A DNA stretch of 64,000 nucleotides from NCBI RefSeq assembly GCF_000949295.1, contig NZ_JXYS01000003.1:1-64000 (forward strand), written 5' to 3'. A program made the translations under genes and the position numbers. The notes below the pieces were generated by a model. The model made no database searches. It was given only the letters and a program-made list of their open reading frames with translations, and was not told where the DNA came from. This stretch comes from Acidithrix ferrooxidans (GTDB taxonomy: Bacteria; Actinomycetota; Acidimicrobiia; Acidimicrobiales; Acidimicrobiaceae). Below, piece after piece: positions 1 to 14,344 of the stretch (positions are counted from its first letter, which is position 1; every line of letters begins with the position of its first letter).

Positions 1-303
1 ATAGCTTGTCCGGTTTGCCATAGTGATTTCTTAGTATCGGGTCGTAAGACCTACTGCTCAGAGCGTTGTAGAGCTAGTGCTTATCGAACTCGACGCAACA
101 ACAGCCAACTCAAGGTACCTGTTGTAGGTAAGAAACAGCCGCTAAAGCCAATCACTGTATATGAGTGTGATATCTGCGGGGAGCGAGCCCTCGGGGAGCA
201 ACGCTGCGACGAATGTCAGAAATTCATGCGTCGTGTTGGCTTTGGAGGACTGTGTCCTCATTGTGATGGAGCAGTTGCCTATGACGAGCTAACCGTTGGT
301 TAA
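1..303 (+). CDS. small zinc-ribbon protein, 5'-truncated by window edge
   Basis: Frame 1 is open from the first base to TAA and gives about 100 residues; the start lies outside the window. It shows a CPVC pair near the beginning, YCSERCRASAYR soon after, and a second cluster YECDICG...CDEC, then a final CPHC. These paired cysteines indicate two to three zinc ribbons. Proteins of this look are, from memory, often found beside IS21-type istA/istB genes in actinobacteria. That fits the mobile-element debris downstream, but the neighbouring transposase is not visible. The role is unknown; DNA or RNA binding is an inference only. Confidence 0.7.
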   Translation: MACPVCHSDFLVSGRKTYCSERCRASAYRTRRNNSQLKVPVVGKKQPLKPITVYECDICGERALGEQRCDECQKFMRRVGFGGLCPHCDGAVAYDELTVG

Positions 304-478
304 GCGAATCTAACAAACTAAAGATCAGGCCATCTTTAGTGAGCGGTGGACGCCTGCACGCTTGCCTCGCAAATAATCTGACACATGTGAATAAGCGCTT
401 CGCGTTTACATGCAGGTGCCAGATCTCGACCACAGGGCCCACCGCTATCGCTACTACCGATAAACAAATAATAAAAAG

Positions 479-523
479 AAGGGTAACTGGTTCCGAAACT
501 ACCCATTGGGACCAGTTACCCTT
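479..523. terminator. 13-bp inverted repeat, terminator-like hairpin
   Basis: AAGGGTAACTGGT (479-491) is exactly complementary to ACCAGTTACCCTT (511-523) around a 19-nt loop. There is no long T-run on the plus strand, so it could be a terminator or an inverted repeat of a mobile element. Confidence 0.4.
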
Positions 524-718
524 CGTGCTACTCCTGGCTTAGAGTTGTCCGTAATCCTCAGAAAAGCGAAAGACAACTTTCTAATCCAACAACGAGAGGA
601 CTATGGACAAATAAATATCAAAAAGACGAGCCATTTAGGCATTAGTTAAGGGACCTTCTAGCCTGACATCTACCAGGATTGAGGTAACTTAGAGATAGGT
701 TAAAGGGATCAGGAAAGT

Positions 719-797
719 CTGGTCCAAAGACTTCGGTACAGTGGTCCAAAGATACTGGTGCTGTGGTCCAAAGATTCTACCAATAGTGGTCCAGAGA
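719..797. repeat. four spaced copies of a 12-bp motif (GTGGTCCAAAGA)
   Basis: Copies start at 719 (CT instead of GT), 741, 763 and 786 (GTGGTCCAGAGA), so the spacing is 22, 22 and 23 bp, about two helical turns. Regular spacing suggests binding of a multimeric protein on one DNA face. IS21-family ends are known to carry several spaced transposase-binding repeats, and the upstream zinc-ribbon gene fits that reading. A regulatory operator array is the alternative. Confidence 0.6.
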
Positions 798-843
798 ATC
801 GGAATAGTCAGCCTATCACCTCCTTAGTGCTATTGAGCTGACC

Positions 844-1056
844 TTGAGGCAAAATAACGATAAGAGAAGATGGTCAACCATTAAAGAGCAACTCAACAGT
901 CACCGCCGAGCCACCATAGTTCTTACATCAGATAAAGGCGTTGTCTATCACATCCGCACTAGTGGTGTTTCTGAGCCGGTTCACAAAGAGATCTACCGTC
1001 TCTTAGGAGTTAGTGATCCCCTTAAACGGATAAAGACCATTGCGACGCATTTGTAG
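844..1056 (+). pseudogene. C-terminal remnant of a transposase (IS1634/IS4-like)
   Basis: The frame opens with TTG and encodes 70 residues. The stretch with HIRTSGVSEPVHKEIYRLLG and a basic end resembles, from memory, the C-terminus of IS1634/IS4-type DDE transposases. Catalytic residues and the N-terminal part are absent, so it is a fragment at best. There is no clear ribosome binding site. Placement among other element remnants supports the reading, but the family assignment is tentative. Confidence 0.35.
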
Positions 1057-1083
1057 TGTCCCAACGTAAGACCACATACTCAA

Positions 1084-1404
1084 CTAGCTGGGAGAATAGG
1101 TTGATTTTCGGAAAGATGGGCTAAGCAATGCCCTCGCCTCGTCCATGAGTGTTGCCCCTAGGCGGATACTATGCAGTGGTACTCGAACAGGGATAGCACG
1201 TAACTCTTGGTCAAGGCGGTCAACTTCGCTTCGTGTTTTCGCTGCTATTGCTGTGAGTTCTTCGTTTTGTGCCTTGAACTTCAACATTGATGTCCACATC
1301 GGCTCCTCGAGTGCGACACCTATCGCTGCTTCTGCCTGAGATAGGGCGAGACGTGCCTTACGTAATTCAGTCTGGGCTGTCTTTTTCGCAGGATTTAGGA
1401 CCAT
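1084..1404 (-). pseudogene. coiled-coil fragment, probably from a large transposase
   Basis: The 106-residue frame has an Ala/Glu/Lys-rich heptad pattern (for example ELRKARLALSQAEAAIG) expected of a long coiled coil. Similar Ala-rich helical segments occur in C-terminal halves of large actinobacterial transposase-like proteins. No catalytic motif is present and the frame ends abruptly in low-complexity SPSFRKSTYSPS. The fragment is adjacent to an IS1595-type relic. It may instead be unrelated; confidence is low. Confidence 0.3.
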
Positions 1405-1529
1405 CCGAATAGGTTCGTCTCAATAAACGCGTAGAAGTCAAGTGCACCGTGCGCGAAGTGTTCTCTTGTATAACGGAGTGTGTTTTCCTGACGCCAGCGA
1501 GCAAACACACGATGAGTTATCTCTGGAAT

Positions 1530-2573
1530 CCTTATAAAGACTCGCAAGCCGTGGCCAGTTTCGCCCCACGGGTCGAGATAAAGGGATATTCTTCGGTGAG
1601 GGCGCAGGTGTTCAATAGACGATCGACCAACGATGATCGACTATCTCTGCGGTTGAATCGGTATATGAAATCTTCTAAATAGAGTTGTTTGTATACTTCT
1701 CTTCCATGGTAGGTGCCATCGATGAACTTCTTGGTATTTCCAATCAGTGTGTAAATCCATTTGAAAACTTCGTGCGCACTTTCATGACTCGATAACGTTA
1801 CTGTGTGGTTTATACCCATCTCTCTCGCACACGCTCGATAGGTGGGTGGGGTTGCCATCGGTTTCTAGAGCGATCTTCGAATTAACGCGTCTTTCTAAGA
1901 CATCAAGCACTGTTTCGGTGGTCGTATTGTCAATGACTTCCATGAAGCAATGGATAGGCGCACCGCTAGCTAGAGACACACCGATCATCACAGTAGTTTG
2001 GTCAGTTCCCCTACCTTATTTTCCTTCTCCATGGCTTATCCCACCAAGGCAGAATTCATCTAGCTGGACTTTCTCATTGAGTTTGTAAATGGAGTTTCGC
2101 TCCGACATTGCTTTGCGGAGCTTGTTTAGCATCAACCAAGCAGCTGGATACGAAACACCTAACTGTCGTGCCAGGGTGGTACCTGCAATCCCACGCTTGT
2201 CGTTCGAAACAAGATACGCCGCTAGGAAGCAGTTCGCGAGGGGAACCCTACTCTTATGAAAGATCGTGCCAGATGTAACGCTCGCTTGGCGGTGCCAAGA
2301 TTTACATTGAAAAAGTGGAGCTCGAGATGCTGCATTTCTTGAAATGAATTGGCCCTAATAAGGTAAATTGATCAGAGTCACACTTTGGACATCTAAAGCT
2401 CTCATAGCAATAACGATTTGATCAGATACTCTTCACGCGCTTATTGCGAAGCGGAAGCGTACCATAAAGGCTGAAATATCCGCCTAGACCGCTTAATCGA
2501 ACATCTGTTCTACTAGAGATTAGCTCCAATCTGGTCTCGGTGGAGGCGAAACTTATGAAACCTGATAAGTATG
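1530..2573. mobile_element. degraded IS1595-type (ISXO2-like) element, copy A, with both ends
   Basis: The right end (2548-2573) reads GAAACTTATGAAACCTGATA followed by AGTATG. Its reverse complement matches the left ends of copies B (34003) and C (62179), which share ACTTATCAAGTTTC. A weaker match, CTTATAAAGACTCGCAAGC, marks the left end at about 1531-1550. The length of about 1.04 kb is normal for IS1595-family elements. The transposase inside is broken, so the copy should be immobile. Confidence 0.7.
1532..2420 (-). pseudogene. IS1595/ISXO2-like transposase, frameshifted
   Basis: Read on the minus strand and stitched across frames, the pieces follow the ISXO2-like transposase order. First comes a zinc-ribbon start (RCPKCDSDQF), then a helical segment with SNDKRG and SYPAAWLMLNKL, then the DDE start KVQLDEF.LGG with MIGVSLASGAPIHCFMEVI. 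Last is a C-terminal segment with TYHG and YRFNRR. At least two frameshifts or stops separate these blocks, so no functional protein is expected. Copies B and C are homologous along most of their length and carry different lesions. Confidence 0.75.
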
Positions 2574-2715
2574 AACTTAAAATTTCCTGAAAACATCTTC
2601 AACTCCGGGGCTCAGCTTCATACTATTCTCGAAAATCCAAGTGTAACTTTACGTATAAAACTTTACGCAATTCAAGGTCATGGCAACATAAGCTGGAGCC
2701 GACTAAACTAAGCAC

Positions 2716-3354
2716 ATGCCGGCCAATACAAAGATAACCAAACGTACTCGCAACCCCCGAGGACAAGGAGACCATCTCCGCGAAGAGATAGTTCTTGCTT
2801 GCATTCGCCTGCTCGATCAAAGCGCATCCGAACTAACTCTCAGCCTTAGATCGATAGCCAAAGAAGCAGGAATTGCAGCCCCTTCCATCTCCCGCCATTT
2901 CCACGACGTCCACGAGATCATCGATACCGTTATCGCTAGGGAGCTTAATGCCTTCCTACGTTTACTTTATGAAGCCCGATCATCTTCACAGAACCCAAGA
3001 GACCAAATCATCGCTCTTGTGCAGGCCTATGTCAACTATGGGATTCAATCGCCAAGTCGCTATCGAGTCCTCTTCAGTCGCACATATTCACCAGATTGGA
3101 ACGAAGATAGACACCCAATGGTCGAAACCTCCCCGCTGATGGCTGAAGCCTTCGCTATCGTCACAGACACCATACAAGAGTGCATAAATATAGGAATTTC
3201 GACTGCAAGTGACACTACACTGGGCGCGGTATTGCTTTGGTATGGCCTTCACGGCCTTATAACTTTACGTCAGTCAATTACAAGCTTCCCGTGGCCTGAT
3301 CTAGACGTCACCGTCGATCGAATTCTTCGAGACTCCATAGCTTTATCCAACTAA
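2716..3354 (+). CDS. TetR/AcrR-family transcriptional regulator
   Basis: The product has 212 residues, normal for the family. Residues about 20-65 form the TetR DNA-binding domain, with the typical LRSIAKEAGIAAPSISRHF recognition-helix region. The C-terminal ligand-binding part (SPSRYRVLF...LLWYGLHGLITLR) resembles TetR proteins with a WHG-type C-terminal domain. A basic, probably unstructured N-terminus (KRTRNPRGQG) precedes it. No target gene is adjacent: upstream is an IS relic and downstream an intron RT relic, so it may be an orphan stranded by insertions. No strong ribosome binding site is visible; the ATG is chosen because it precedes the full HTH domain. The ligand is unknown. Confidence 0.85.
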   Translation: MPANTKITKRTRNPRGQGDHLREEIVLACIRLLDQSASELTLSLRSIAKEAGIAAPSISRHFHDVHEIIDTVIARELNAFLRLLYEARSSSQNPRDQIIALVQAYVNYGIQSPSRYRVLFSRTYSPDWNEDRHPMVETSPLMAEAFAIVTDTIQECINIGISTASDTTLGAVLLWYGLHGLITLRQSITSFPWPDLDVTVDRILRDSIALSN

Positions 3355-3625
3355 AAAAGTTCAGTCAGCTTCACCGTCCTTGGGAAATTTGTCATCTCGT
3401 ATCACCAGGAAATGGATAAGATCCGCAGCTAGAAAACTCCTAAAGCTTTCGCGGATGCGAGTAGCTGAGTACGCTATGACAACCCCGCCATCGAGCAATT
3501 CTATCGATCGCTCGCCGTTATCGTGACTTGATACGCGCCGGGTTTAATGGAGACTCAGTTACCTGTGAACCAACTGGTTCTCAAGGTCTAGTTTGATATT
3601 AGCAGATGGAGTTCTTCTCTCAAGA

Positions 3626-4200
3626 TTAGGAGTCTCCACTATTTCCGGGGCATATCACTTTCAACCAACGTTTGATGTAGAGAATTATCCATGGCTCTGA
3701 TACGTGCATAGAGACAGCTTTTAGCAGCAGTTCATGATCTATCGTGTCGAAGAAGGCCTTGATATCTAGATAAATGACCCAATCGTACTTCCAACATCTC
3801 TTGCGTGCTTTTTCAATGGCATCATGGGCTGAGCGATTCGGCCTGTAACCATAGGAGTCTTCGTGGAAGACCTCTTCCAATCTTGGCTCTATGTAGGCTT
3901 TAGCTACCCCTTGGGCGATGCGATCTTTGACGGTTGGAATACCTAGGATTCTTTTACCGCCATCTGACTTGTCTATCTCGACATATCTAGTTGCCGCTGG
4001 AAAATAACTTCCAGAAGCCATTCGATTCCAGAGTTGGTAGAGATTGTTCTTTAGATCCATCTCAAAGACTGAGATGGACTGCTTATCAATCCCTGGTGCT
4101 CGCTTTGTGTCTATTGTGATTGGCTTTTGCCTCTTTGTATGCTTTAAGTACGACGTACTTGTCTTTTGTCAAAAGCTTTTTCTTGTCGTGGTCTTGTCAT
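3626..4200 (-). pseudogene. ltrA: group II intron reverse transcriptase, truncated and frameshifted (RT1)
   Basis: An ATG at 4198-4200 preceded by AGGGAGGG begins MTRPRQEKAFDKRQV, the usual start of a bacterial intron RT. The frame then hits a stop, and the protein resumes in other frames as IDKQSISVFEMDLKNNLYQL followed by RT blocks GKRILGIPTVKDRI, SYGYRPNRSAHDAI and YLDIKAFFDTIDHELL. The sequence leaves homology after ILYIKRWLK, before the YADD catalytic block, so both catalysis and maturase domain are missing. It is a different RT lineage from the one just upstream at 4375-5797. Confidence 0.8.
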
Positions 4201-4304
4201 TTGATCCCTCCCTATCAACTTTTACCTTGAGAAGTTGTTCATTTGCCAATTACAACTAGATCTGCTGTTTACTCCATCTCTTTGGCTTACATCCTCATTA
4301 CAAG

Positions 4305-4317
4305 GACTTCGTAGCTA
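4305..4317 (+). pseudogene. possible 5' fragment of a tRNA-Arg gene
   Basis: GACTTCG followed by TAGCTA resembles a tRNA acceptor 5' strand plus the start of a D-arm. GACTTCG pairs with the CGAACTC acceptor strand at 6296-6302 with one mismatch. It lies just outside the 3' end of the antisense group II intron, whose other flank is the tRNA-Arg 3' half. The match is short, so this is only suggestive. Confidence 0.35.
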
Positions 4318-6261
4318 ATCCCGGTAGGGACCGCCCTTACGGGCGGCCCCCCGGACAGATCCCATCGAGTCGAACTACCGCAATGGGCTCCTGCCTTGGG
4401 TTCTGGCAGCGAAGCGCACGCTAGGATAGGGGTGCGCAATGCGGGCAGGGGGCAGCCATCGGTCGCTAATTCGACTGAAGCGATCCCAGGTCATCCGGTT
4501 GCGCTGGCTTCGACGCCGAAGCGTCTCTCGCCAGAGTCGTCTCACCTGTTTACGAAAAGCCGACACCGCGTCGATGTTACCAGGCACGGCGTAGTAGTTG
4601 AAGTGTCCCCTCAACACACTCGCCAGCCACCGCCCTTGTTCGGGAATGGACTGGTGACGACGACGCCGAAGCTCGGTTCTTACCTGCTTCAGCTTCATTC
4701 TCAGTCGTTTCTTGATAGTGACGCGCCTGAGCCAGAAACGCCCGTCCTTGGTCTTTCCACAGATGTGGGTAAATCCCAAGAAGTCGAAGGTCTCCGGCTT
4801 TTTGAGGCCCCGCTCCTTTCGGTTCTGAGCCGCAAAGCGACCGAACTCGATCAGGCGGGTCTTGTCCGGGTGCAGTTCTAAGTTGAACTTCACGAATCGT
4901 TCACGAAGGTCGCTGAGGAACTGCCTTGCATCACCAAGATACTGGAATCCAACCACGAAGTCGTCGGCAAACCTCGAGACGATCATGTCGCTCCGTGCAT
5001 GCTTGTATCTCCACTGTCGGACCCAGCGGTCGAAGACATAATGAAGGTACACGTTAGCGAGCAGTGGTGAAACCGATGCCCCTTGTGCTGATCCTTCGGT
5101 CGTCTTTGTGCACTTCGCATCCTCGATGACTCCTGCGGCCAACCATTTGTCGATCAGTCGCAGGATTCTTTTATCCGCAATGCGATGCTCGAGAAACTTC
5201 CTCAACCACGTCCGATCCAACTTGGAGAAGAAGTCGCTGATATCAGCGTCGAGTATCCAGTTCACCTTTTTCTCTAAGATCCCGACCGCCAGCGCATCAA
5301 GCGCATCGTGGGGGCTACGTCATGGTCGGAACCCGTAGGAGAATCCGAGAAAGTCTTCTAGTATATAGCGTTCAATACCTCCACCACCCAACGTTGGATG
5401 ATCTTGTCCTCCAGCGTTGCGATACCGAGTGGGCGTTGTCGTCCATCTGGTTTTGGTATGTATACCCTACGAGAAGGGCTTGCCCGTTAGGCACCGTTGT
5501 GGACCCTTTGAAGAAGATCCTCGAGGTTCTCCCTCAGATTCTCTTCGTAGGAGTGCCATGTCACGTTATCGATTTCATGGCGCAGCCTTCGGGTTAATCG
5601 CTAAATAGGCGGCCTTCAGGCGGTCTGAGTCGATGTGGTGCAATAAGTGCTGTGAACTTTGCTTGCTTGTCCTTTCTTGCTACTTCGCGCACACGATCCA
5701 GCCCGTTTGACACACCTTGTCCGCAAGTGGGTCCGGTTCTGAGTCCGGGGCGTGTTAGGTCGGTCGTGTTCCCCTTGGCCAACCCCCTTTCCTCCACTAC
5801 CTCCTTTCCTCCACTACCTCCGCTACCGGTCCCCCGGTTTTGTTCGACAGCTTCGTAGGTAATATGGGGTTGTCTGACTTCCCGCGCTCGTTCATCTCAG
5901 GCGTACGACCTTAGCCTTTCCTGAGCGGCCCACTGGGTGATCAACCCGACTGGCGAGCGCGGGATCTCCCGGTTCTCGCGCATGGAGGTTCCGTAGGTGC
6001 CATGGTTCTCTGACCGCGCGGGGCCCACAAGCAACTTGCGATAGCGCTAGCGGTGGTGTTGCCTTCCGCTTCCATAGACAGCGTCGGCACCTCGAATTCT
6101 CTGATTACGCGCCTCAATAGCCTGGCCTGCACGTGCCCCTGTCAACGCTTCGCCTGCGTCCTCGCGGACGCCGACGCATGACTCGGGGTCATCGTGGTTC
6201 GCTAGACCTTCGATGTAGGGCTCTTTCATCTCTTCCTCCATACCGGTTTATCCCGGCGCAC
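4318..6261 (-). mobile_element. degraded group II intron with broken RT gene
   Basis: On the minus strand the element begins GTGCGCC (6261-6255), matching the group II 5' consensus GUGYG. It continues through a GC-rich leader whose small frame (KEPYIEGLANHDDPESCVGV) is commonly seen upstream of this RT lineage. The RT relic follows. At the 3' side, GAGCCCATTGCGGTAG overlaps the RT stop codon and can pair with the GATGGGATC segment, and a second hairpin has a 10-bp stem and GTAA loop (4331-4354). These positions fit domains V/VI, but the helix sizes are not canonical, so the 3' boundary is approximate. The element is visibly GC-richer than its surroundings, indicating acquisition. Confidence 0.65.
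4375..5797 (-). pseudogene. ltrA: group II intron reverse transcriptase/maturase, frameshifted (RT2)
   Basis: Reading starts at MEERGLAKGN and, across frames, follows the family order. The blocks are a conserved N-terminus (LDRVREVARKDKQAKFTAL), then [40 protein letters not shown], then the long intact frame from NWILDADISDFFSKLD to the C-terminal RTQGRSPLR. Lesions seen are a frameshift near 5358 and an in-frame TGA near 5324 inside YGFRP-RSPHDAL, plus earlier frame changes. The catalytic block reads FADD rather than the usual YADD, and the preceding TPQG block reads SAQG. Loss of activity is therefore very likely. Confidence 0.8.
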
Positions 6262-6306
6262 CTACGGATCAGAACGCCAGGGGTTCGAATCCCTCCGAAC
6301 TCGCTA
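6262..6306 (+). pseudogene. tRNA-Arg(ACG) 3' half
   Basis: The segment begins exactly next to the intron 5' boundary with CTACGGA, an anticodon loop carrying ACG. The 3' anticodon-stem strand TCAGA follows. Next come a variable loop, a T-arm with loop TTCGAAT (6284-6290), acceptor strand CGAACTC, discriminator G and CTA. It therefore covers about tRNA positions 32-76. The 5' half is missing here; a candidate remnant lies at 4305-4317 on the other side of the intron. The outer T-stem pairs are imperfect, so the gene may have been decaying already. Confidence 0.6.
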
Positions 6307-6361
6307 CATATGTCCAGCTAAAAGCCTATTTCTAGGGGAGCCCGTCAATCTTTGACTTTCG

Positions 6362-6943
6362 TTTGGTCGGTAGTTGTGAGTTTTTTCTAATGTAAGAGTT
6401 CGGTACCTCTGTTACACATTGGCCTTACCACCTGTTTTACACTTTCCAGATCGGCTTTGGTAGCTGGGCGACACTGGCTCCGATACCTGTGTTACAGTTT
6501 TTTCTTTGAAAATTGGCGACGCAATCACTTGGATTGCCTAATACTTGGCCATCGAGGAGGTCGCCATGTTGGTGGAGCTAGCTGTGACAATGAGCGTCGG
6601 CGCATGTTCGGAAATTCGTATAGTTGATGGTGGCAAAGTATTAGGTAAGAGTGCGGACAAGCGGTGCCTGACCATAGTTTGCAGTCCAACCTGGTTCTAG
6701 ACAGAACTTGCCGCTTACCGCGTAAATGCTCTCAGGTGCACCAGGTGAGTGGTGTCGGGGAATTCTCGTTGAAAAGCTACATGCTGTAATTTCGCCAAAA
6801 AGAACTGCAAACGTGCACCTTTTGACTGCCAGTTATAAGTTACAGGGCTTTTACCAGGAACGATTCGAGTGTACTTTCGTGCAATACCTATCGTGACCTA
6901 CTATTAGCGTACAAGGATAATATTTTCCCAACTACCGACCAAA
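6362..6943. mobile_element. MITE-like element with 15-bp terminal inverted repeats
   Basis: TTTGGTCGGTAGTTG at 6362-6376 is the exact inverse complement of CAACTACCGACCAAA at 6929-6943. Inside are spaced repeats of ACCTGTGTTACA type (6404, 6430, 6484). There is also a good ribosome binding site (GAGGAGG, 6554-6560) with an ATG at 6566 starting MLVELAV, which resembles the first residues of IS481-type transposases before homology is lost. The whole looks like an internally deleted IS481-like element without its own transposase. No clear target-site duplication is visible. Confidence 0.55.
6404..6501. repeat. three copies of an ACCTNTGTTACA-type motif
   Basis: ACCTCTGTTACAC, ACCTGTTTTACAC and ACCTGTGTTACAG occur at about 6405, 6430 and 6485 in the same orientation. 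They sit near one end of the inverted-repeat-bounded element and are likely sub-terminal transposase-binding sites. Confidence 0.5.
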
Positions 6944-6944
6944 T

Positions 6945-7220
6945 TTATCGGTCATAGTGTTTTGACCAAGTTAGTAACCGCTTGGTTCCATCGTCTGCTC
7001 TCTTAAACGTTAGTCTTAGTACAACACTCGCGGACGCTGACCATGATCCACTTCGGTCGCCTTCAAGTTTATGCACCCGGACGGAAGGGTGTTTCTCGTT
7101 TTCGTCGAGAAGGCGTAATGCTTTTAGGAAAGTTTTGCGATCGGAGGGGGTAAAATCCCGAGACGCGAACGTCAGGAGGAAGGTTTCTGTAAATTCGAGA
7201 GATTGATATTCGTGGAGCAC
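6945..7220 (-). CDS. RelE/ParE-superfamily toxin of a type II toxin-antitoxin pair
   Basis: The 91-residue product has the size and pattern of small RelE/ParE/YafQ-fold toxins: FTPSDRKTFLKALRLL (helical pair), HPSVRVHKLEG, and the beta-sheet part GSWSASASVVLRLTFKR ending LTWSKHYDR. RelE-like members cleave mRNA at the ribosome and ParE-like members act on gyrase; the sequence does not decide between them. It starts at a GTG four bases after the antitoxin stop, with GAGG overlapping that stop, so translation is coupled. The stop codon lies one base from the terminal repeat of the MITE-like element, so the last residues may have been altered by its insertion. Confidence 0.75.
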   Translation of the reverse strand: MLHEYQSLEFTETFLLTFASRDFTPSDRKTFLKALRLLDENEKHPSVRVHKLEGDRSGSWSASASVVLRLTFKRADDGTKRLLTWSKHYDR

Positions 7221-7224
7221 TTCC

Positions 7225-7497
7225 TCAGCTACCTAGAGATTCCAGGTCCTCTTCGCTAAGTCTCTTGACGCGGCCCTCTTTGGAATCTCGATGTGCCCTC
7301 TCCATGAGTTCACGGTGATCAGGAGTGTACGCCCAAGCATCTTCTAACCTTAGGTAAACGACTCGTCGTAAGACAAGGGCTTCTTGCTCCATGTCCACCT
7401 CGATCTCGAGCTCCGTGCCCTCGGTCAGTCCAAGCTGCTTTCTTACAGATGCTGGTACCGTCAGTCTTCCCGATCCATGTACAGTTACAGTTTCCAT
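7225..7497 (-). CDS. AbrB/MazE-like antitoxin
   Basis: The 90-residue protein begins METVTVHGSGRLTVPASVRK, the swapped-hairpin AbrB/SpoVT DNA-binding fold (residues about 1-48). An acidic tail (residues 50-90) probably wraps the toxin. It is the first gene of the pair with the RelE/ParE-like toxin, the usual antitoxin-first order. A perfect-half-site palindrome lies 16 bases upstream and is the likely autoregulatory operator. Pairing of an AbrB-fold antitoxin with a RelE/ParE-fold toxin is common in environmental genomes. Confidence 0.8.
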   Translation of the reverse strand: METVTVHGSGRLTVPASVRKQLGLTEGTELEIEVDMEQEALVLRRVVYLRLEDAWAYTPDHRELMERAHRDSKEGRVKRLSEEDLESLGS

Positions 7498-7512
7498 AAC
7501 CTCGAGTGTACC

Positions 7513-7533
7513 TTATTGCCAGAATGGCAGTAA
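7513..7533. promoter_or_regulatory. palindromic operator upstream of the antitoxin gene
   Basis: Half-sites TTATTGCCA and TGGCAGTAA flank the centre GAA; eight of nine positions are complementary. It lies 16 bp before the antitoxin ATG. AbrB-fold antitoxins are known to repress their own operons, so autoregulation is the natural inference. Confidence 0.55.
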
Positions 7534-7755
7534 TACAATTCGGCATAATGGTGATTAGCCAGGTAAGTCCAAGCCAAAGCAATACGAGTTTACCTTCACG
7601 ACATGGGTGGAGTCGTCGGCTTGATAACTTGGCAATCCAAGGTTCAAGTTATGATCTTGAACCAGCAACATTACAAATTCAGGATGCCTCAGGGAAAGAA
7701 AGAAACGGATGAAGCTAGGTCCTATTTAAAGTAGCTTTAATAATAAGGAAGTCGG

Positions 7756-8064
7756 TTGGTGTCACCTGGATTCGCAACCTTGACAGGTGCGTGGGACGAG
7801 GAGGCACCGGATGTCTTCATCCTGGGTGCGGGGATTTCCATAGCCGCTGATTTATCATTCCCTGACACTGATACGTTGGGAACTAGAGCGCTTGACAAAA
7901 TTCACCATGCAAACCGTTTGGGTATTGACCTTTCTATTCTGCCGGAGCAGTTCAGACACGGCCTGTTTGAGGTATGGCTGGCTCAGATTGCGGAAGATCA
8001 ACCGTCCTTCTCAAGAGGGAAAAACAGCGCCGAGTCGAGCAAATATAGTCAACCCGTGAGATAA
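7756..8064 (+). pseudogene. 5' stub of a SIR2-like domain gene
   Basis: From a GTG start with AAGGAAG upstream, the first 80 residues read PDVFILGAGISIAADLSFP, then TLGTRAL and FEVWLAQIAEDQPSF. The GAGxS glycine loop of an NAD-binding Rossmann site and the FE-WL-LAEDQP block are typical of SIR2-like proteins, several of which act in anti-phage defence. After QPSF the homology stops and the frame runs into SRGKNSAESSKYSQPVR. The catalytic histidine region and the rest of the protein are absent. The break falls beside a convergent gene. Confidence 0.5.
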
Positions 8065-8441
8065 TCCGGTCCTTCTGGAATGTCGACTGCATGCTCTTGC
8101 AGCACGGCGAGCGGCACGATGTCCAGGACGCGCTCGTGGGTGGATGCGAGTACCACGTAGGCCGCAGCACCATCGTGGTGGGCCCGGAACCAGTTTGCCG
8201 CGGTTACGCACCAGCGGTCCCCGGGAATCAAGCCCGGGAAGCGATACTGCGGAGCTGGAGTGACGAGATCGTTGCCGATATTGCGCTGATGTTCGAGGAA
8301 GTCGGCTGTTACCACGGCACAGATAGTGTGGCTACCCAGATCTTCAGGTCCGGTGGAACAGCATCCATTCCGGTAGAAGCCGGTGAGCGGATCGGTGCCG
8401 CACGGCTCCAGTTCACCACCCAACACGTTGAATTCGCCCAT
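8049..8441 (-). CDS. DUF2237 family protein
   Basis: With the start set at MGEFNVLGG the protein is 130 residues, the usual DUF2237 length. The family signature is clear: FNVLGGELEPC, DPLTGFYRNGCC, TGPEDLGSHTICAVVT, GNDLVTP, FPGLIPGDRWCVTAANW and a final THERVLDIVPLAVLQEHA. The conserved cysteines (PC, GCC, IC, WC) suggest metal or redox chemistry, but the function is not established. The upstream 31 codons have no family match, hence the internal ATG. The gene is visibly GC-richer than the core genes and lies among mobile-element relics, so recent transfer is likely. Confidence 0.85.
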   Translation of the reverse strand: MGEFNVLGGELEPCGTDPLTGFYRNGCCSTGPEDLGSHTICAVVTADFLEHQRNIGNDLVTPAPQYRFPGLIPGDRWCVTAANWFRAHHDGAAAYVVLASTHERVLDIVPLAVLQEHAVDIPEGPDYLTG

Positions 8442-8628
8442 CCATGAAGTATAACACAACAGACTCGGCGCACCTTGGTGCTTCGAAGCTTTTGGTGGCC
8501 GCAAGTGAGTTATCAACCCATCGATAGTGACCATACGCCGACACCCGAGCCCAGAAACCAGACGTGTCCTAACCCGTCAATGACTGTAAACAACGACGAC
8601 GCCCATGGGGCCTTGACCTTCCTGTTGC

Positions 8629-8674
8629 CAGCAACATTAAATTGACCCAGGATCAGCAACATTAAATTGACCCA
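8629..8674. repeat. two direct repeats, IS21-type end
   Basis: CAGCAACATTAAATTGACCC occurs twice with a 24-bp period (about 8630 and 8654). About 55 bp further is an ATG opening an IstA-like N-terminus. Spaced direct repeats before istA are a feature of IS21-family left ends. Confidence 0.6.
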
Positions 8675-8727
8675 CCCTCCAGTAAGACTTGTCTGTGGAA
8701 CATTCAAAACCACGGAGGAGTCATCAA

Positions 8728-8786
8728 ATGCTGAAGGGCAGGACATTAATGAATTTAATTGAATTAAGATCACAAGGACACAGCTA
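8728..8786 (+). pseudogene. N-terminal stub of an IS21 transposase (istA)
   Basis: GGAGG precedes an ATG; the reading MLKGRTLMNLIELRSQGHSY is the start of the helix-turn-helix region of IstA-type transposases. Homology is cut after about 20 residues exactly where the tRNA-Thr-containing direct repeat begins, so a recombination event removed the rest. Confidence 0.5.
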
Positions 8787-8901
8787 TCACAAAATAATTA
8801 TGTATTTTCTTATACTGGTGTCAATCGGAAAGAGTAAAAACGGCTTCTGGACTGGAGCCCGAGAGGAGATTCGAACTCCTGACATGCTCATTACGAGTGA
8901 G
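8787..8901. repeat. direct repeat with tRNA-Thr 3' part (distal copy, attL-like)
   Basis: These 115 bp match 13085-13200 at most positions, including the last 49 nt of tRNA-Thr(CGT) with CCA (8853-8901, minus strand) and about 65 bp of its downstream flank. The match stops abruptly inside the anticodon stem. A displaced tRNA 3' end at one side and an intact tRNA at the other is the classic footprint of an element integrated at a tRNA gene. Confidence 0.7.
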
Positions 8902-9600
8902 GTCTATATCAGATCAGAAGAAACCTTAAATTACAAAAACGCATGTCATAGGCGGTGTCCCAACTACATATGGACAACCAAGAACGCTATTGTTTACAAA
9001 AATTATGTACTGATTTATGTAGTGCTGATTTTTACGGGAATAATAAAGGCCCTCTTCACCCTTGATCGGGAGCTCCCCCGATCTTCCTGGACTCATTGAA
9101 ACCTCCGTCGACCACTTGAGTAGGTCATCGGCACTCCAAAGCAGCGGGCTACTGTAAGTCAGAGGTGGGCTTTCCGTAAATGGGCTTCAATGTTTTCCGT
9201 AATTCTTTCCTGGTACTTGTGTGCTACATCTTAAAGGAAAACTACGCGTTTGTTTGCTACAGACACTAGTGCGTGCATGAGTGCGATATGCATCCGTATT
9301 CGCGCAACAAGGTCGCCACCTGTAATGGAGCCTAAGACCTGACTCTCACCGAGAATCTGCGGAATTATAACCTTATTTCATCCAGTCGTTTCGATGCAAT
9401 ACCCTCCAAGATTGCGGTTTCCAGCTTTGCCAAAGACATTGATATTCTTTCGCTTAGACCCGTGAGGCTTCCTAAAGCCGCTGATCTTGATAACGCGTAC
9501 CCTACTTGCTTCCACCCGCGACCAACGCGAAACACTTACCTGCGAGTGTGCACTCCCAAACCCTATGAATCCCTGGGAGAGTTCGCCAGGCTGCCCGCAA
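8902..9600. other. gene-free stretch inside the putative island
   Basis: No frame with family character is seen. A GATCGGG/CCCGATC palindrome lies at 9064-9083, without a T-run. The rest looks like decayed AT-rich sequence. Confidence 0.4.
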
Positions 9601-9939
9601 TCATGCTGATGCTTTCGTTGACCCCTCGACTTCTAACGATCCCAAATGGATGCTTATATTGAAGTCAATCCCAAGTTTCTCTGAAAGTCGTCTGAGCATA
9701 TCTATACTCGGGTTGTGTTCTCCTTCTTCAAGTCTCGCAATAGCAGGTTGGTGCATCCCGAGCCTTCTACCCAACTCCGTCTGAGAAATGCCATGCTCCA
9801 CGCGGTACTCGATTACTCGAACCGCCACGGCACGCGCCAAGGCAGTACGTTCCCACTCCTCCTGAAACTCGGGATCCTTGAGAAGACCCTCTAAGACCTC
9901 CTTGCCAGTCTTTGTTCCTTTTGGTGTCCTATCCATCAT
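9601..9939 (-). CDS. HigA-type XRE-family antitoxin
   Basis: The 112-residue protein has a helical N-terminus and an XRE helix-turn-helix at about residues 48-95 (HGISQTELGRRLGMHQPAIARLEEGEHNPSIDMLRRLSEKLG). It follows the HigB-like toxin gene with an ATGA overlap, the toxin-first order typical of HigBA systems. The protein should neutralise the toxin and repress the operon. Because the toxin frame is broken, the antitoxin may now be a solitary regulator. The C-terminus (SLEVEGSTKASA) is polar and looks unstructured. Confidence 0.8.
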   Translation of the reverse strand: MMDRTPKGTKTGKEVLEGLLKDPEFQEEWERTALARAVAVRVIEYRVEHGISQTELGRRLGMHQPAIARLEEGEHNPSIDMLRRLSEKLGIDFNISIHLGSLEVEGSTKASA

Positions 9940-10273
9940 TCTCCGTACTCCTTAAACCCGCTAAGACGCTCCTCAGCCAACCTAACACTCCGTCGGAAAC
10001 CTTTCGGACTCACCGAGGCCTCCGGTCCAACCGCTCCGATTGCAAACAGCTCAGGCCCTACGCGTCGGTAAAAAACCCGCCAACGGCTTCTCCCTCCTCT
10101 TGGTCGGAGCTCTCTCAGGCCGTCAGTTTCCGAATTGAACTCTGATGGGGGAAGGGTAGTCCACTACCCATTGTCTCTAATTTCACTTGAGCATCTCCAA
10201 TCGCTCTTTTCTCACTGACCGGCAGCGTTTCGAATTCGGCTACCGCTTCTTTGCACCACAGCGTTTCTGCCAT
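9936..10273 (-). pseudogene. HigB/RelE-type toxin with a single frameshift
   Basis: From ATG at 10271-10273 (GGGAG seven bases upstream) the frame reads MAETLWCKEAVAEFETLPVS to GLPFPHQSSIRKLTA and stops. In the -1 frame it continues as DGLRELRPRGGRSRWRVFYR through to KGFRRSVRLAEERL and stops at TGA overlapping the antitoxin ATG. LPFP, DGLRELR and RVFY are core HigB/RelE-fold blocks. Rejoined, the product would be about 112 residues, normal for the family. One extra base near 10120 explains everything; a sequencing error is the alternative to inactivation. A TATAAT-containing AT-rich stretch lies upstream (about 10320). Confidence 0.7.
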
Positions 10274-10509
10274 ACTCTCCCACTGAGTTTTTGCCTAAGA
10301 TATTGCTAAACATAACAACTTTATTATATTCTAAGTACTCTCATATACTTCCTGACCCGCTCAGCTTCCTACGCAAGTTTGGAATCTCTGCCAATGCTTT
10401 CTCTCTGCCCACAGAAAGACCGCTAAGATCTACTTGATCCGCTCCAGAAAACCTAGGCATTTCTAGGTATCCTTTTATTTTCGCTCTCCAGCCGCTGAGT
10501 CTCCCCCGT

Positions 10510-12313
10510 TCACACCGTGTGCTCGGGACTCTGCGAGTCGGTGGCATCGAAAACATTACCACCTTCCACAACGGGCTTGCGCCTTCGTGGTTTGCTTGGA
10601 GTCCTGCCGTGAGCGGTAGCTCTGTCTTCGATACACGCACCCTGGACACCGTTGCCGGTGATCCCCTGAAGGACGATACGTGCTCCAACTCGGCTTTCCT
10701 TTCGGCTACGGAACCTCTCGTTCTGGATCACCTTCACCTCGGTGTAGGCGGTGAAGACACTGATCTGTCGATCAGTGAGTCTGGATTTGAGGTTCGTGGC
10801 GGCTACGTGGTCTGCATCACCCTGGCGGTTGCAATCCCAATATGGATTGCGCCAGTGAAACGTGTCCCCCTGGCGGTTGTCCGATGAGACATACCCCCAG
10901 GTCGGTTCGGGACACGTTTGGCTGGTGTAGGCCGCGTTTACCGTTTTGGCATCGACACCGCCGATGCTCGTATGCACCACCATGCGACCTTCGTTCTCGG
11001 ATCGCATCCATGTGGAACATATCCGAGACATCTTCTTTGACTTGGCCTTGCCGCGCAAGTACGAGAGGTCTTCAGTAGCGAGGAGGCGCGGGCGCTGTGT
11101 TGGGTCTTGGGGAACCTTACCCCTCGCCCTGGTCCGGTTGCCTTTTCCGTAGATAACCTCTTTTGTCGCCTGACCCGACAGCGTGCGTACGCTGGCCTGG
11201 GCACGTTCACGTCGACGAGCCTGCTTCTTGTGGCCGAGGTTGTTCCTCGCTATCCTGGGGGCCTTCTTCGATTTGGTGTTTACCTTGCGAAGAGACCTGG
11301 TCCTCGCATGTGCTTTGCCTCGGACCTTGCCTGTTGCGTTGTTCTTTTCACTGAACTCTTCAAGGATCTCACCGAGGCTGATCCCGTGCTTGTGTCCTTT
11401 TGAGTCCGTGCACACCTCGGTAACACCCCAGTCGATGGCATCAATTGGTCCGGTCGCCTTCTCCGGGGCCTTGATGCCATAGACAACATGGACCGTTGCG
11501 CACTTCGATCCCTTTTCCGCCACGAGACGGATGTCGCCCGACACGCGTGAGACCCCAACAAGTGAAAGTGCGATCCGTGCATTGGTCTTGGCTCCGATGA
11601 TCTTCACGTACTGCGAAAGATGGGGCTGCCTGCACCTGCGGTCTTCGGGGTTACAGGTATGGTTCTTGGGAATTGCCATCGTGGTGAATGTCGCGTACAG
11701 GGTTTCTGCCAGAGCCATCGACCGCATCGCGTGTGCCCTCGGGTTCTTGTGCTTGGAGAGTGCCTTACGCAGTACCCGATGCAAGTAACGCACAACCTGG
11801 GCGTGTTCCTTTCCTCCTAAGCCGACAAGTACCTTCAAATTGATAGCAGGAACTCTACCTTGTGTGATTTCTCCGATCCATGCGTAACGAGTGAGACAGG
11901 TATAGGCAAAATGTTGCTGCATCTCGTTGTCTCTATAGTGCTTATGGATCTTGGCCTTCACGTTTTCTATGGCCAGGACTGACTCGATGTGGCGCACCCA
12001 GGTGTCCACAGCGTCGAAGGCTGCCTGGTCTACCAAGTGGACGTTGACGTCCTGTGGGTAGACGTCCGCCTTCTTCATAGCGTCTCGGAAGTCCCGCTTG
12101 GAATCGAGGAAACTCCACATCCCCATAGGAGCCAACTCCACCAAGAAACGATCTTTGGCATCTCTGTAACTGCGGAGCGCCTCGTCTATCTGCGCACGCT
12201 TATGTGTGGACAGAGGGAGCGTTCCGAGTCGTACGGTCCTCTTTTTAGCCTGGGGTATGGATTTAGCCTCAATACCATTCAGTTAAGCACCAGCACACAG
12301 ATACACCGCTCAT
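10510..12313 (-). pseudogene. tnpB: IS607 TnpB (RuvC-type RNA-guided nuclease family), decayed
   Basis: TnpB proteins are RuvC nucleases that cut DNA at sites given by an RNA from the element's own end. Blocks seen are the first RuvC aspartate (DAIDWGVTEVCTDSKG), the glutamate block (LLATEDLSYLRG) and the last aspartate (GDADHVAATNL). The zinc ribbon is damaged: CPEPTWG and FHWRNPYWDC carry Trp where family members have Cys. Translation should begin at the ATG overlapping the recombinase stop (MSGVSVCWCLTEWY), but a 1-nt shift near 12283 puts that start out of frame with the long frame. The long frame itself opens at a TTG at 12144. Both lesions point to inactivity. Confidence 0.75.
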
Positions 12314-12935
12314 GGTGAGATCTCCCTGGCTTTCGCTTGGAGTGTTTCCATCACTTTTTGGTTCTTGTTGCTTTTCGACCCGCACAACCTGGCCGAGAAG
12401 ACGGTTACGATCTCGATGACATGTCTGCTAGGTCTTCTCCAAAGGTGGAATCCTCGCTAGCGTTGATGATAACGACTTCAACTCCGAAATGCTCACAAAG
12501 GGACAAGACGAGTTCTGACCCAAAACGAAGCAGTCGATCCTTATGGCTAAGCACAAGCCGACCGACCTCGCCTGAACAGATCCTGGAGATAAGCTGTTTG
12601 AGTCCCCGCTTATGGTAGTTGAGTCCTGATCCCACATCGGAGATGACCTCGTAGATCCACCCGTTTGCCGCGCAGAAGGATTCGAGCAGTGCCACCTGGC
12701 GCACCAGGTCGTCCTTCTGTTGGTTTGTGGATACCCTGGCATAGGCAATCGTCGCTCTCGCTGATGGTCTCTGGCGTGGAGCGAGGTGGTGCATCTTGGC
12801 TAAGTCGTAGCGTCTTCTGCCACCAGCAGTGCGCTCGGCTGGAACTATGCGACCCTCTACTTCCCATCGCCGAAGTGTGTCAGGATGCACGCCAAGCTCT
12901 TTTGCTGCTATGGCGATAGGTACCAGTTGTCCCAT
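12310..12935 (-). pseudogene. tnpA: IS607 serine recombinase (TnpA) with frameshift
   Basis: The N-terminus has a MerR-like helix-turn-helix (IAAKELGVHPDTLRRWEVEG). Next comes a serine-recombinase catalytic domain with YARVSTNQQKDDL, where the S is the nucleophile, and the dimer helix region. The main frame ends early at DLADMSSRS. The -1 or +2 frame then resumes with the missing tail EIVTVFSARLCGSKSNKNQK and stops at a TGA that overlaps the tnpB ATG. A one-base deletion near 12418 explains this. The intact gene would be about 208 residues, normal for IS607 TnpA. Confidence 0.8.
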
Positions 12936-12952
12936 GACCTAAAGTACAATAC

Positions 12953-12979
12953 ATCAGTGCGACACTGATAAGTACTTAT
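12953..12979. promoter_or_regulatory. two abutting palindromes before the recombinase gene
   Basis: ATCAGTG-CGA-CACTGAT (12953-12969) is followed by ATAAGTACTTAT (12968-12979). They lie 18-44 bp upstream of the recombinase start and could be its operator or sub-terminal recombinase-binding sites of IS607. Confidence 0.4.
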
Positions 12980-13084
12980 GTCTGCCGAACTAGATGCGAA
13001 CAGCTTCGTGCCCCGTCACAGGATCGAGGCCGGCGCTTACCCGCAGTTTCCAGACGCCCGGTCGTATCTCTTTCTTGTGGCCTG

Positions 13085-13200
13085 TCACAAAACAATTATG
13101 TATTTTTTATGTACTGGTGTCAAGTAAAAAGAGTAAAAATAGTCTCTGGCCTGGAGCCCGAGAGGAGATTCGAACTCCTGACCTGCTCATTACGAGTGAG
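13085..13200. repeat. direct repeat with tRNA-Thr 3' part (proximal copy, attR-like)
   Basis: Partner of 8787-8901. Here the repeat joins the 5' part of the tRNA gene, so the tRNA is intact. Differences from the distal copy are concentrated in the downstream flank; the tRNA part differs at one base. Confidence 0.7.
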
Positions 13201-13227
13201 CTGCTCTGCCGACTGAGCTACCCGGGC
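13152..13227 (-). tRNA. thrT: tRNA-Thr (anticodon CGT)
   Basis: The minus strand folds as a complete 76-nt cloverleaf. Acceptor GCCCGGG pairs with CTCGGGC through one G-T pair, the D-arm is GCTC/GAGC, and the anticodon stem GCTCA/TGAGC encloses loop CTCGTAA. The T-arm is AGGAG-TTCGAAT-CTCCT, and CCA is encoded. The anticodon CGT reads ACG threonine codons. The 3' end faces the island at lower coordinates. Confidence 0.95.
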
Positions 13228-13264
13228 ATTATCGCCGTATTAATCATAGCGAACTTTTAGCGAT

Positions 13265-14344
13265 TTAGCGTCTCTGGCCAAAAAGGCTAGCTAGTGCAAT
13301 GGTTTCTGAAACCCCGGCATTGAGTTGGCGCAATGTCGTCCTCGAGGCGTCAATAACTTTCTGATAGTTTTCCGCTGCTTGGACGGGGTCTGCGCCTTCA
13401 AAAAATTGGGATCCACGATAATATGCTAGAAATATAGAGATCCCTGCATCGAATTCAACCTTCCGTCTAAATCGCAAAATCCGCTTATGTTCGTTCTCGA
13501 CTTCCCTAAAGATCCCTTTCATTCCTGAACTCTTTTGATTCGTAGCCTTGAAGCTAGAAAGCTCTATCTCCTGTTGTTTTTTTAGATCAGCCGTAACGCT
13601 ATCGATAAGATTGGTTACACGTGACGCATCTAAAATCAGCTCTTTTGCATTTGTGTAGCGTTTACCAGCTGGCTCCCCCCACGCCTCAAGGCGATTCTCC
13701 AACCTTCCATCGAGACCTAAATCCCGAGCTAAATCAAGATTTCCTCTAGCAAAGGATGAAGTAAGCTTCGCCTCTTTAGAACCCAGTCCTTGATCTTCTA
13801 ACCACTGAGTGACCTCCTGGTCTAAAAGGCCCGAGAACTCCACCCGAACACACCTAGAGGCGATTGTGGCCAAGGCCTTGTGGATGGTGCGAGCCACAAT
13901 AATGAAGACAGTAGATGCCGGCGGTTCTTCTATAACTTTCAAGAGCACAGGGGCTACCTCTGCTATGTTGTCAAACTCTTCGATGATGACAACCCTACGA
14001 GAAGATTGGTTTGGCGACAAAACAGCCAATCGGATTATGTCATCGCGGATTGTGTCAACCGAGAGCGAGCTCTTGAACTTCTCAAAATAGTTCAGATCCG
14101 GAGATCGCCGTGCAAGGGTCGCAAGACAGATCCCACAGCTTCCACACCCTCCGCTGGAACACAGAAGTCCCGCCGCAAAGGCCAAAGCCCAAAGCTCTTT
14201 TCCGCTACCAGGCGGACCATAGAAAAGGTAACTATTATTCGGATGAGATAGGTGAGCACCTAAAACAGGTGCTAAATCACGGTGGACAGAGACCGACTTC
14301 AATACCGGCGAAATTACGAGCGAATCGCTTTCAAAATCTGACAT
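13265..14344 (-). CDS. holB: DNA polymerase III subunit delta'
   Basis: A 359-residue clamp-loader subunit. It has Walker A GPPGSGK at residues 43-49, a zinc module of four cysteines at about 62, 67, 70 and 73, and a Walker B-like VVIIEEFDNI. The sensor-1 stretch ends in SRCVRVEF. In the replisome, delta' joins delta and tau/gamma to load the beta clamp. The gene is last in the topA-tmk-holB run on the minus strand, 90 nt after tmk, a frequent actinobacterial grouping. The C-terminal third (after about residue 210) is helical and poorly conserved, as is usual. Confidence 0.9.
   Translation of the reverse strand: MSDFESDSLVISPVLKSVSVHRDLAPVLGAHLSHPNNSYLFYGPPGSGKELWALAFAAGLLCSSGGCGSCGICLATLARRSPDLNYFEKFKSSLSVDTIRDDIIRLAVLSPNQSSRRVVIIEEFDNIAEVAPVLLKVIEEPPASTVFIIVARTIHKALATIASRCVRVEFSGLLDQEVTQWLEDQGLGSKEAKLTSSFARGNLDLARDLGLDGRLENRLEAWGEPAGKRYTNAKELILDASRVTNLIDSVTADLKKQQEIELSSFKATNQKSSGMKGIFREVENEHKRILRFRRKVEFDAGISIFLAYYRGSQFFEGADPVQAAENYQKVIDASRTTLRQLNAGVSETIALASLFGQRR

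What the first reader, a model, noticed from the sequence alone, without database searches (positions are those of the whole stretch)
8787..13227. 115-bp direct repeat carrying the tRNA-Thr 3' end flanks a 4.3-kb island
8787-8901 and 13085-13200 share the last 49 nt of tRNA-Thr(CGT) plus about 65 bp downstream; the match ends inside the anticodon stem. The intact tRNA is at one end and the displaced 3' part at the other, with a HigBA pair and an IS607 element between them. This is what a tRNA-targeting integrative element leaves. No tyrosine integrase gene is seen, so it is either lost or the repeat arose by another duplication. The distal repeat also cuts an istA stub precisely.
Basis: partly seen in the sequence, partly recalled or inferred. 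Interest (0 to 1): 0.62.

Follow-up and report, generated by a model that had tools for sequence, protein, structure and literature searches.

The report
Decayed tandem islands at a tRNA
The repeat marks two successive, now broken, mobile elements that inserted into the same tRNA-Thr gene, and a fragment of the integrase gene that inserted one of them is still there; this is an ordinary kind of genomic scar, read here in some detail.

Summary
The repeat is real: 8784-8901 matches 13082-13200 at 87% (E 3e-35) and occurs nowhere else in the assembly. The "65 bp downstream of the tRNA" are the promoter and GTG start of a tyrosine integrase. Minus strand 13088-13011 encodes its first 26 residues (78% identical to an intact 374-aa integrase in a relative) and is then cut by IS607. 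In relatives this integrase family sits just after a tRNA 3' end (Thr, Lys, Arg, Met, Tyr, Gln), often with the same leader, and five loci show displaced tRNA 3' fragments that begin at the anticodon loop.

A simple attL/attR pair would share only the tRNA core. Here both copies carry core plus integrase leader, so both are integrase-proximal ends: two related elements accreted in tandem. int2 was deleted from its start codon, at a 4-bp microhomology with an IS21 istA remnant; this explains the "precise" istA cut. The tRNA parts are 98% identical and the leaders 80%, which speaks against one recent duplication. The last (third) tRNA fragment was not found. This is a new member of a known kind, of modest interest.

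The parts
13152..13227 (-). intact tRNA-Thr(CGT), target gene, restored by the element
   Evidence: ARAGORN; Rfam RF00005
13152..13200 (-). proximal att core: tRNA 3' half from the anticodon stem to the 3' end
   Evidence: 48/49 identical to 8853-8901; same boundary region as displaced fragments in relatives
13089..13151 (-). integrase leader 1: motif CAGGCCAGAG after the tRNA, then TTGACA (13123-13118), 17-nt spacer, CATAAT (13100-13095)
   Evidence: sequence; same promoter before intact or decayed integrases L132, L025, L024, L026, L027; leader motif survey
13011..13088 (-). int1 remnant: GTG start and 26 codons of a tyrosine integrase (VTGHKKEIRPGVWKLRVSAGLDPVTG)
   Evidence: translation; 78-81% identity to intact 374-aa integrase L025; that protein is PF00589
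10437..13013 (-). IS607-family element (tnpA 12405-12935, tnpB 10510-12144) inserted in int1
   Evidence: NF033518, NF040570 and Pfam hits; ends defined by 98% copies in C2 and C152
9601..9939 (-). HigA-like HTH antitoxin, cargo of element 1
   Evidence: HTH_3 PF01381
9943..10280 (-). HigB-like toxin remnant, frame broken
   Evidence: three-frame translation; relative in the integrase-bearing element L154 (33% over 72 aa)
8853..8901 (-). displaced tRNA-Thr 3' half: end of element 1 and start of element 2
8788..8852 (-). integrase leader 2 (TTGACA and CATAAT kept) up to the lost start codon of int2
   Evidence: 80% identical to leader 1; junction defined by istA copies
8622..8791 (+). IS21-family remnant: left end and first codons of istA, fused to leader 2 at microhomology TCAC (8788-8791)
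   Evidence: 99% identical to copies in C39 and C6, no further istA in the window

Best explanation
Two related integrative elements inserted one after the other into tRNA-Thr(CGT) by tyrosine integrases that cross over at the anticodon loop. Each element carries, at its integrase end, a replacement tRNA 3' half, a short conserved leader with the integrase promoter, and the integrase gene reading away from the tRNA. The order (minus strand) is tRNA-Thr - leader1 - int1 - element 1 - tRNA 3' half - leader2 - [int2 lost] - element 2. Both are dead: IS607 interrupts int1 after codon 26 with loss of the rest, and a deletion joined an IS21 remnant to the start codon of int2. Shown: repeat, int1 remnant, leader conservation, family architecture, IS ends, istA junction. 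Inferred: that copy 2 came with a second integration, crossover position, order of events.
For: Repeat. int1 remnant and its intact relative. In 41 of 43 integrase-family loci with enough upstream sequence a tRNA T-arm lies 60-170 nt before the integrase start (one of the 41, L116, is probably a chance match), at Thr, Lys, Arg, Met, Tyr and Gln tRNAs. The same tRNA-Thr has an intact family member in G064 (L097) and decayed ones in G009 (L023) and probably G027 (L005). The leader motif CAGNYCARR follows the tRNA in 24 of 41 against 0.17 expected in shuffles and 0 of 17 tRNA-Thr control sites. Integrases directly after displaced tRNA 3' fragments are seen in L025, L105, L137 and L160 (pseudogene); L160 and L161 are displaced tRNA-Gln halves in one genome. 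tRNA part 48/49, leader 49/61 identical: Fisher p 0.006, as expected of two diverged elements sharing a constrained core. Ancestral neighbours are displaced.
Against: No int2 codons survive, so copy 2 is identified by its leader alone. No third tRNA-Thr fragment (the original 3' end) was found in the assembly nor before the sigma anchor; contig C3 ends at window position 1 and C26 begins in a tandem repeat. The DNA right of IS607 is not the rest of int1, so a deletion must be assumed. No xis, rep or transfer gene was recognised between the repeats.
Confidence: 0.82

Rival explanations
1. Local duplication: the segment tRNA 3' half plus integrase leader of one element was copied 4.3 kb away by IS activity or illegitimate recombination; there never was a second element.
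For: int2 itself is missing; the genome is IS-rich; the distal copy is fused to IS21.
Against: The duplication would have to begin at the anticodon stem, where displaced tRNA fragments of this family begin in relatives. Mismatches are concentrated in the leader (12 of 61) and not the tRNA part (1 of 49), p 0.006; unselected copies should diverge evenly.
Confidence: 0.1
2. One reading: one island with attL and attR, the whole 115 bp being the att identity block.
For: Intact tRNA at one end and displaced 3' half at the other, right orientation.
Against: The block beyond the tRNA is an integrase promoter and start, which belongs to the element's integrase end and should occur once per element; DNA left of 8784 is not ancestral.
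Confidence: 0.05
3. Assembly artefact of a metagenome-assembled genome: joins at the IS21 or tRNA repeat are chimaeric.
For: 183 contigs, many IS copies, contig ends in repeats.
Against: The two copies differ by 13 of 110 bases, so they are not one collapsed repeat; int1 and its leader fit the tRNA-Thr locus as in G009 and G064.
Confidence: 0.03

Closest known systems
tRNA-targeted genomic islands and their tandem arrays (Islander, PMC4383910)
   Same: Intact tRNA, displaced cognate 3' fragment in the same orientation, anticodon-loop type crossover, tyrosine integrase at the tRNA end.
   Different: Both integrases are destroyed, so Islander's rule for a tandem (each member with its own integrase and tRNA fragment) is met only by remnants; the terminal fragment is missing.
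[quoted passage not shown] reviewed in PMC5704250)
   Same: A decayed element that keeps att sites but has lost integration and transfer genes, next to another element at the same target.
   Different: No intact partner element is present to mobilise it.
Actinobacterial ICEs (AICE, pSAM2 type; PMC3218068)
   Same: Tyrosine integrase at a tRNA 3' end; tandem AICEs and repeats extending beyond the tRNA 3' end are described there; this genome has one at tRNA-Met (C104: int, HTH_17, RepSA, FtsK, NUDIX).
   Different: No RepSA or FtsK gene survives in the interval; the C104 integrase is only 38% identical to the L025 relative of int1. Not filed as AICE.

Membership tests
tRNA-targeted integrative island | intact tRNA plus displaced cognate fragment, same orientation | tested here: met
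tRNA-targeted integrative island | tyrosine integrase gene next to the tRNA | tested here: met
   present as a 26-codon remnant with its promoter; intact in relatives
tRNA-targeted integrative island | empty site in relatives | tested here: met
   five same-genus genomes have tRNA-Thr directly followed by the MarR-like, ClC-like and sigma genes; the exact empty site of this strain could not be reconstructed because the contig ends
tandem array of islands | each member has its own integrase and tRNA fragment | tested here: inconclusive
   int1 remnant and leader 2 are there, int2 codons and the terminal tRNA fragment are not
CIME | integration and transfer genes lost, att sites kept | tested here: met
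   mobilisation in cis not testable
AICE (pSAM2 type) | RepSA/Prim-Pol replication and FtsK/TraSA transfer genes | tested here: not met
   no homologue of the C104 AICE genes in window 1-13000
IS607 family | MerR-like plus serine resolvase TnpA with TnpB | tested here: met
   NF033518 1.4e-50 and guided_TnpB; the TnpB score is below NCBI's cut-off (41.7 against 100 bits)

The most novel reading that the evidence does not exclude
The integrase lineage keeps an almost fixed module (leader motif, promoter, start codon) while switching between at least six tRNA identities, and its small elements carry anti-phage genes in this bacterial family (Shedu-type SduA in L151, LmuB-like gene near the decayed copy in G009): a family of defence-carrying tRNA islands that may not have been described.
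Probability: 0.25. Interest if true: 0.45.

Novelty: new member of a known kind. Interest (0 to 1): 0.27.

Why it matters
It shows that repeats at a tRNA can be read as the integrase ends of successive elements even after the integrases are destroyed, because the integrase leader outlives the gene. The set of related integrases at different tRNAs with a shared leader is a usable natural series for asking how tRNA target choice changes while the rest of the module stays.

Tried and rejected
A search for a third tRNA-Thr 3' fragment in the assembly and upstream of the sigma anchor in C26 found none. A search for the rest of int1 right of IS607 found none. Distal att ends of intact family members (C104, G064, G063, G002, G020, G013) were not on the fetched stretches. 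A named close relative in genome contigs was not found. Phage origin was considered: the listed phage integrases are under 30% identical and the viral-contig hits 30-36%, so no phage assignment. AICE assignment rejected for lack of RepSA/FtsK. istA as a target of site-specific insertion rejected: no istA on the far side of the repeat, and the junction is a 4-bp microhomology.

Full report
Observation. tRNA-Thr(CGT) lies at 13152-13227 minus. The direct repeat 8784-8901 / 13082-13200 is 87% identical and the assembly holds no further copy. Its tRNA part is 48/49 identical and its remaining part 49/61.

The integrase is not missing. On the minus strand the 65 bp after the tRNA read as a promoter (TTGACA, 17 nt, CATAAT) followed at 13088 by a GTG start and 26 codons, VTGHKKEIRPGVWKLRVSAGLDPVTG. 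tblastn places this on the N-terminus of an intact 374-aa protein in relative G027 (L025; 81% over 26 residues; 78%), which is a tyrosine integrase by Pfam (PF00589, 5e-21). Homology ends exactly where IS607 begins: a 98% copy of the IS in contig C2 starts at window 13013, and its right end at 10437 is fixed by a copy in C152.

Family architecture. I surveyed the integrase family in 42 genomes of the same family and looked upstream of the better matches. In 41 of 43 loci with at least 150 nt upstream a tRNA T-arm lies 60-170 nt before the integrase start (one, L116, probably by chance). Targets are tRNA-Thr, Lys, Arg, Met, Tyr and Gln. The closest relatives share the promoter nearly letter for letter (for example L132 at tRNA-Lys: TTGACACCAGTACATAAAAAGTACATAAT). 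A motif CAGNYCARR directly after the tRNA is found in 24 of 41 leaders, against 0.17 expected in shuffles and 0 of 17 control tRNA-Thr sites. It is probably a recombinase-binding site (inference). The same tRNA-Thr carries an intact integrase of this family in G064 (L097) and a decayed one in G009 (L023).

Consequence for the repeat. In a single integration attL and attR share only the core. Here both copies share core plus integrase leader, so both are integrase-proximal ends. The same arrangement, an integrase straight after a displaced tRNA 3' fragment that begins at the anticodon loop, is seen in L025, L105 and L137 and as a pseudogene in L160; genome G020 has two displaced tRNA-Gln halves. 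The uneven divergence (1 of 49 against 12 of 61, Fisher p 0.006) fits two diverged elements with a constrained core better than one duplication.

The istA cut. IS21 copies in C39 and C6 match window 8622-8791 at 99% and run 5 bases further with one mismatch. int1 has TCAC at the corresponding place. The junction is therefore a 4-bp microhomology at the int2 start codon: a deletion, which removed int2 and the rest of IS21. No other istA sequence is in the window.

Surroundings. In five same-genus genomes tRNA-Thr is followed at once by a MarR-like gene, then chloride-channel-like and, in the four whose contigs run far enough, ECF sigma genes (names from reading the sequences). In this genome the sigma gene is on contig C26:2095, whose left end is a tandem repeat. 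So at least 13 kb of non-ancestral DNA, window 1-13151, lies between tRNA-Thr and its old neighbours (inference from these placements). It is a mosaic of IS copies, a group II intron, a MazE-like antitoxin and a DUF2237 gene.

Comparison with the known. Tandem islands at one tRNA are known: Islander counts 125 tandems and two main crossover classes (PMC4383910). Accretion and CIMEs are reviewed in PMC5704250, and tandem AICEs with repeats beyond the tRNA 3' end in PMC3218068. This locus is a decayed member of that kind. It is not filed as an AICE, because no RepSA or FtsK gene is present, although an AICE-like element with a related integrase sits at tRNA-Met in the same genome.

Limits. The second element is inferred from its leader; its integrase and its far tRNA fragment are gone or unassembled. 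The order of the two integrations is not determined. The genome is an unnamed, fragmented assembly.

Noticed in passing
G000 contig C104:2700-9905 (L087): AICE-like element of pSAM2 type in the same genome: tRNA-Met, tyrosine integrase, HTH_17 excisionase-like gene, RepSA (3.5e-152), FtsK/SpoIIIE protein, NUDIX protein. The distal att was not found.
   Followed up: partly
window 6263-6304 +: A displaced tRNA-Arg(ACG) 3' fragment (84% to the tRNA-Arg in C19), cut at its anticodon loop by the 5' end of a group II intron on the minus strand: a third att-like scar, in the opposite orientation.
   Followed up: partly
L151 (G063:C38) 809-4782: tRNA-Lys element with nearly the same integrase promoter as the window; its next gene is a short SduA (Shedu) C-terminal protein, followed by a STAND-like ATPase.
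   Followed up: partly
L023 (G009:C51) 7447-13553: At the same tRNA-Thr in G009: decayed integrase, an IS110-like gene (by reading), and a gene whose N-terminus matches LmuB (Lamassu) models, suggesting a defence hotspot.
   Followed up: partly
window 9943-10280 -: HigB-like toxin with a broken frame beside an intact HigA-like antitoxin.
   Followed up: no
G000 contig C26:1-300: Contig begins in a nearly perfect tandem repeat of about 25 bp (ggtgcaactgcacaacctggcgc), near the old downstream side of tRNA-Thr.
   Followed up: no
whole genome G000: 4.0 Mb against 1.9-2.8 Mb in same-genus relatives, with very many IS and group II intron copies.
   Followed up: no
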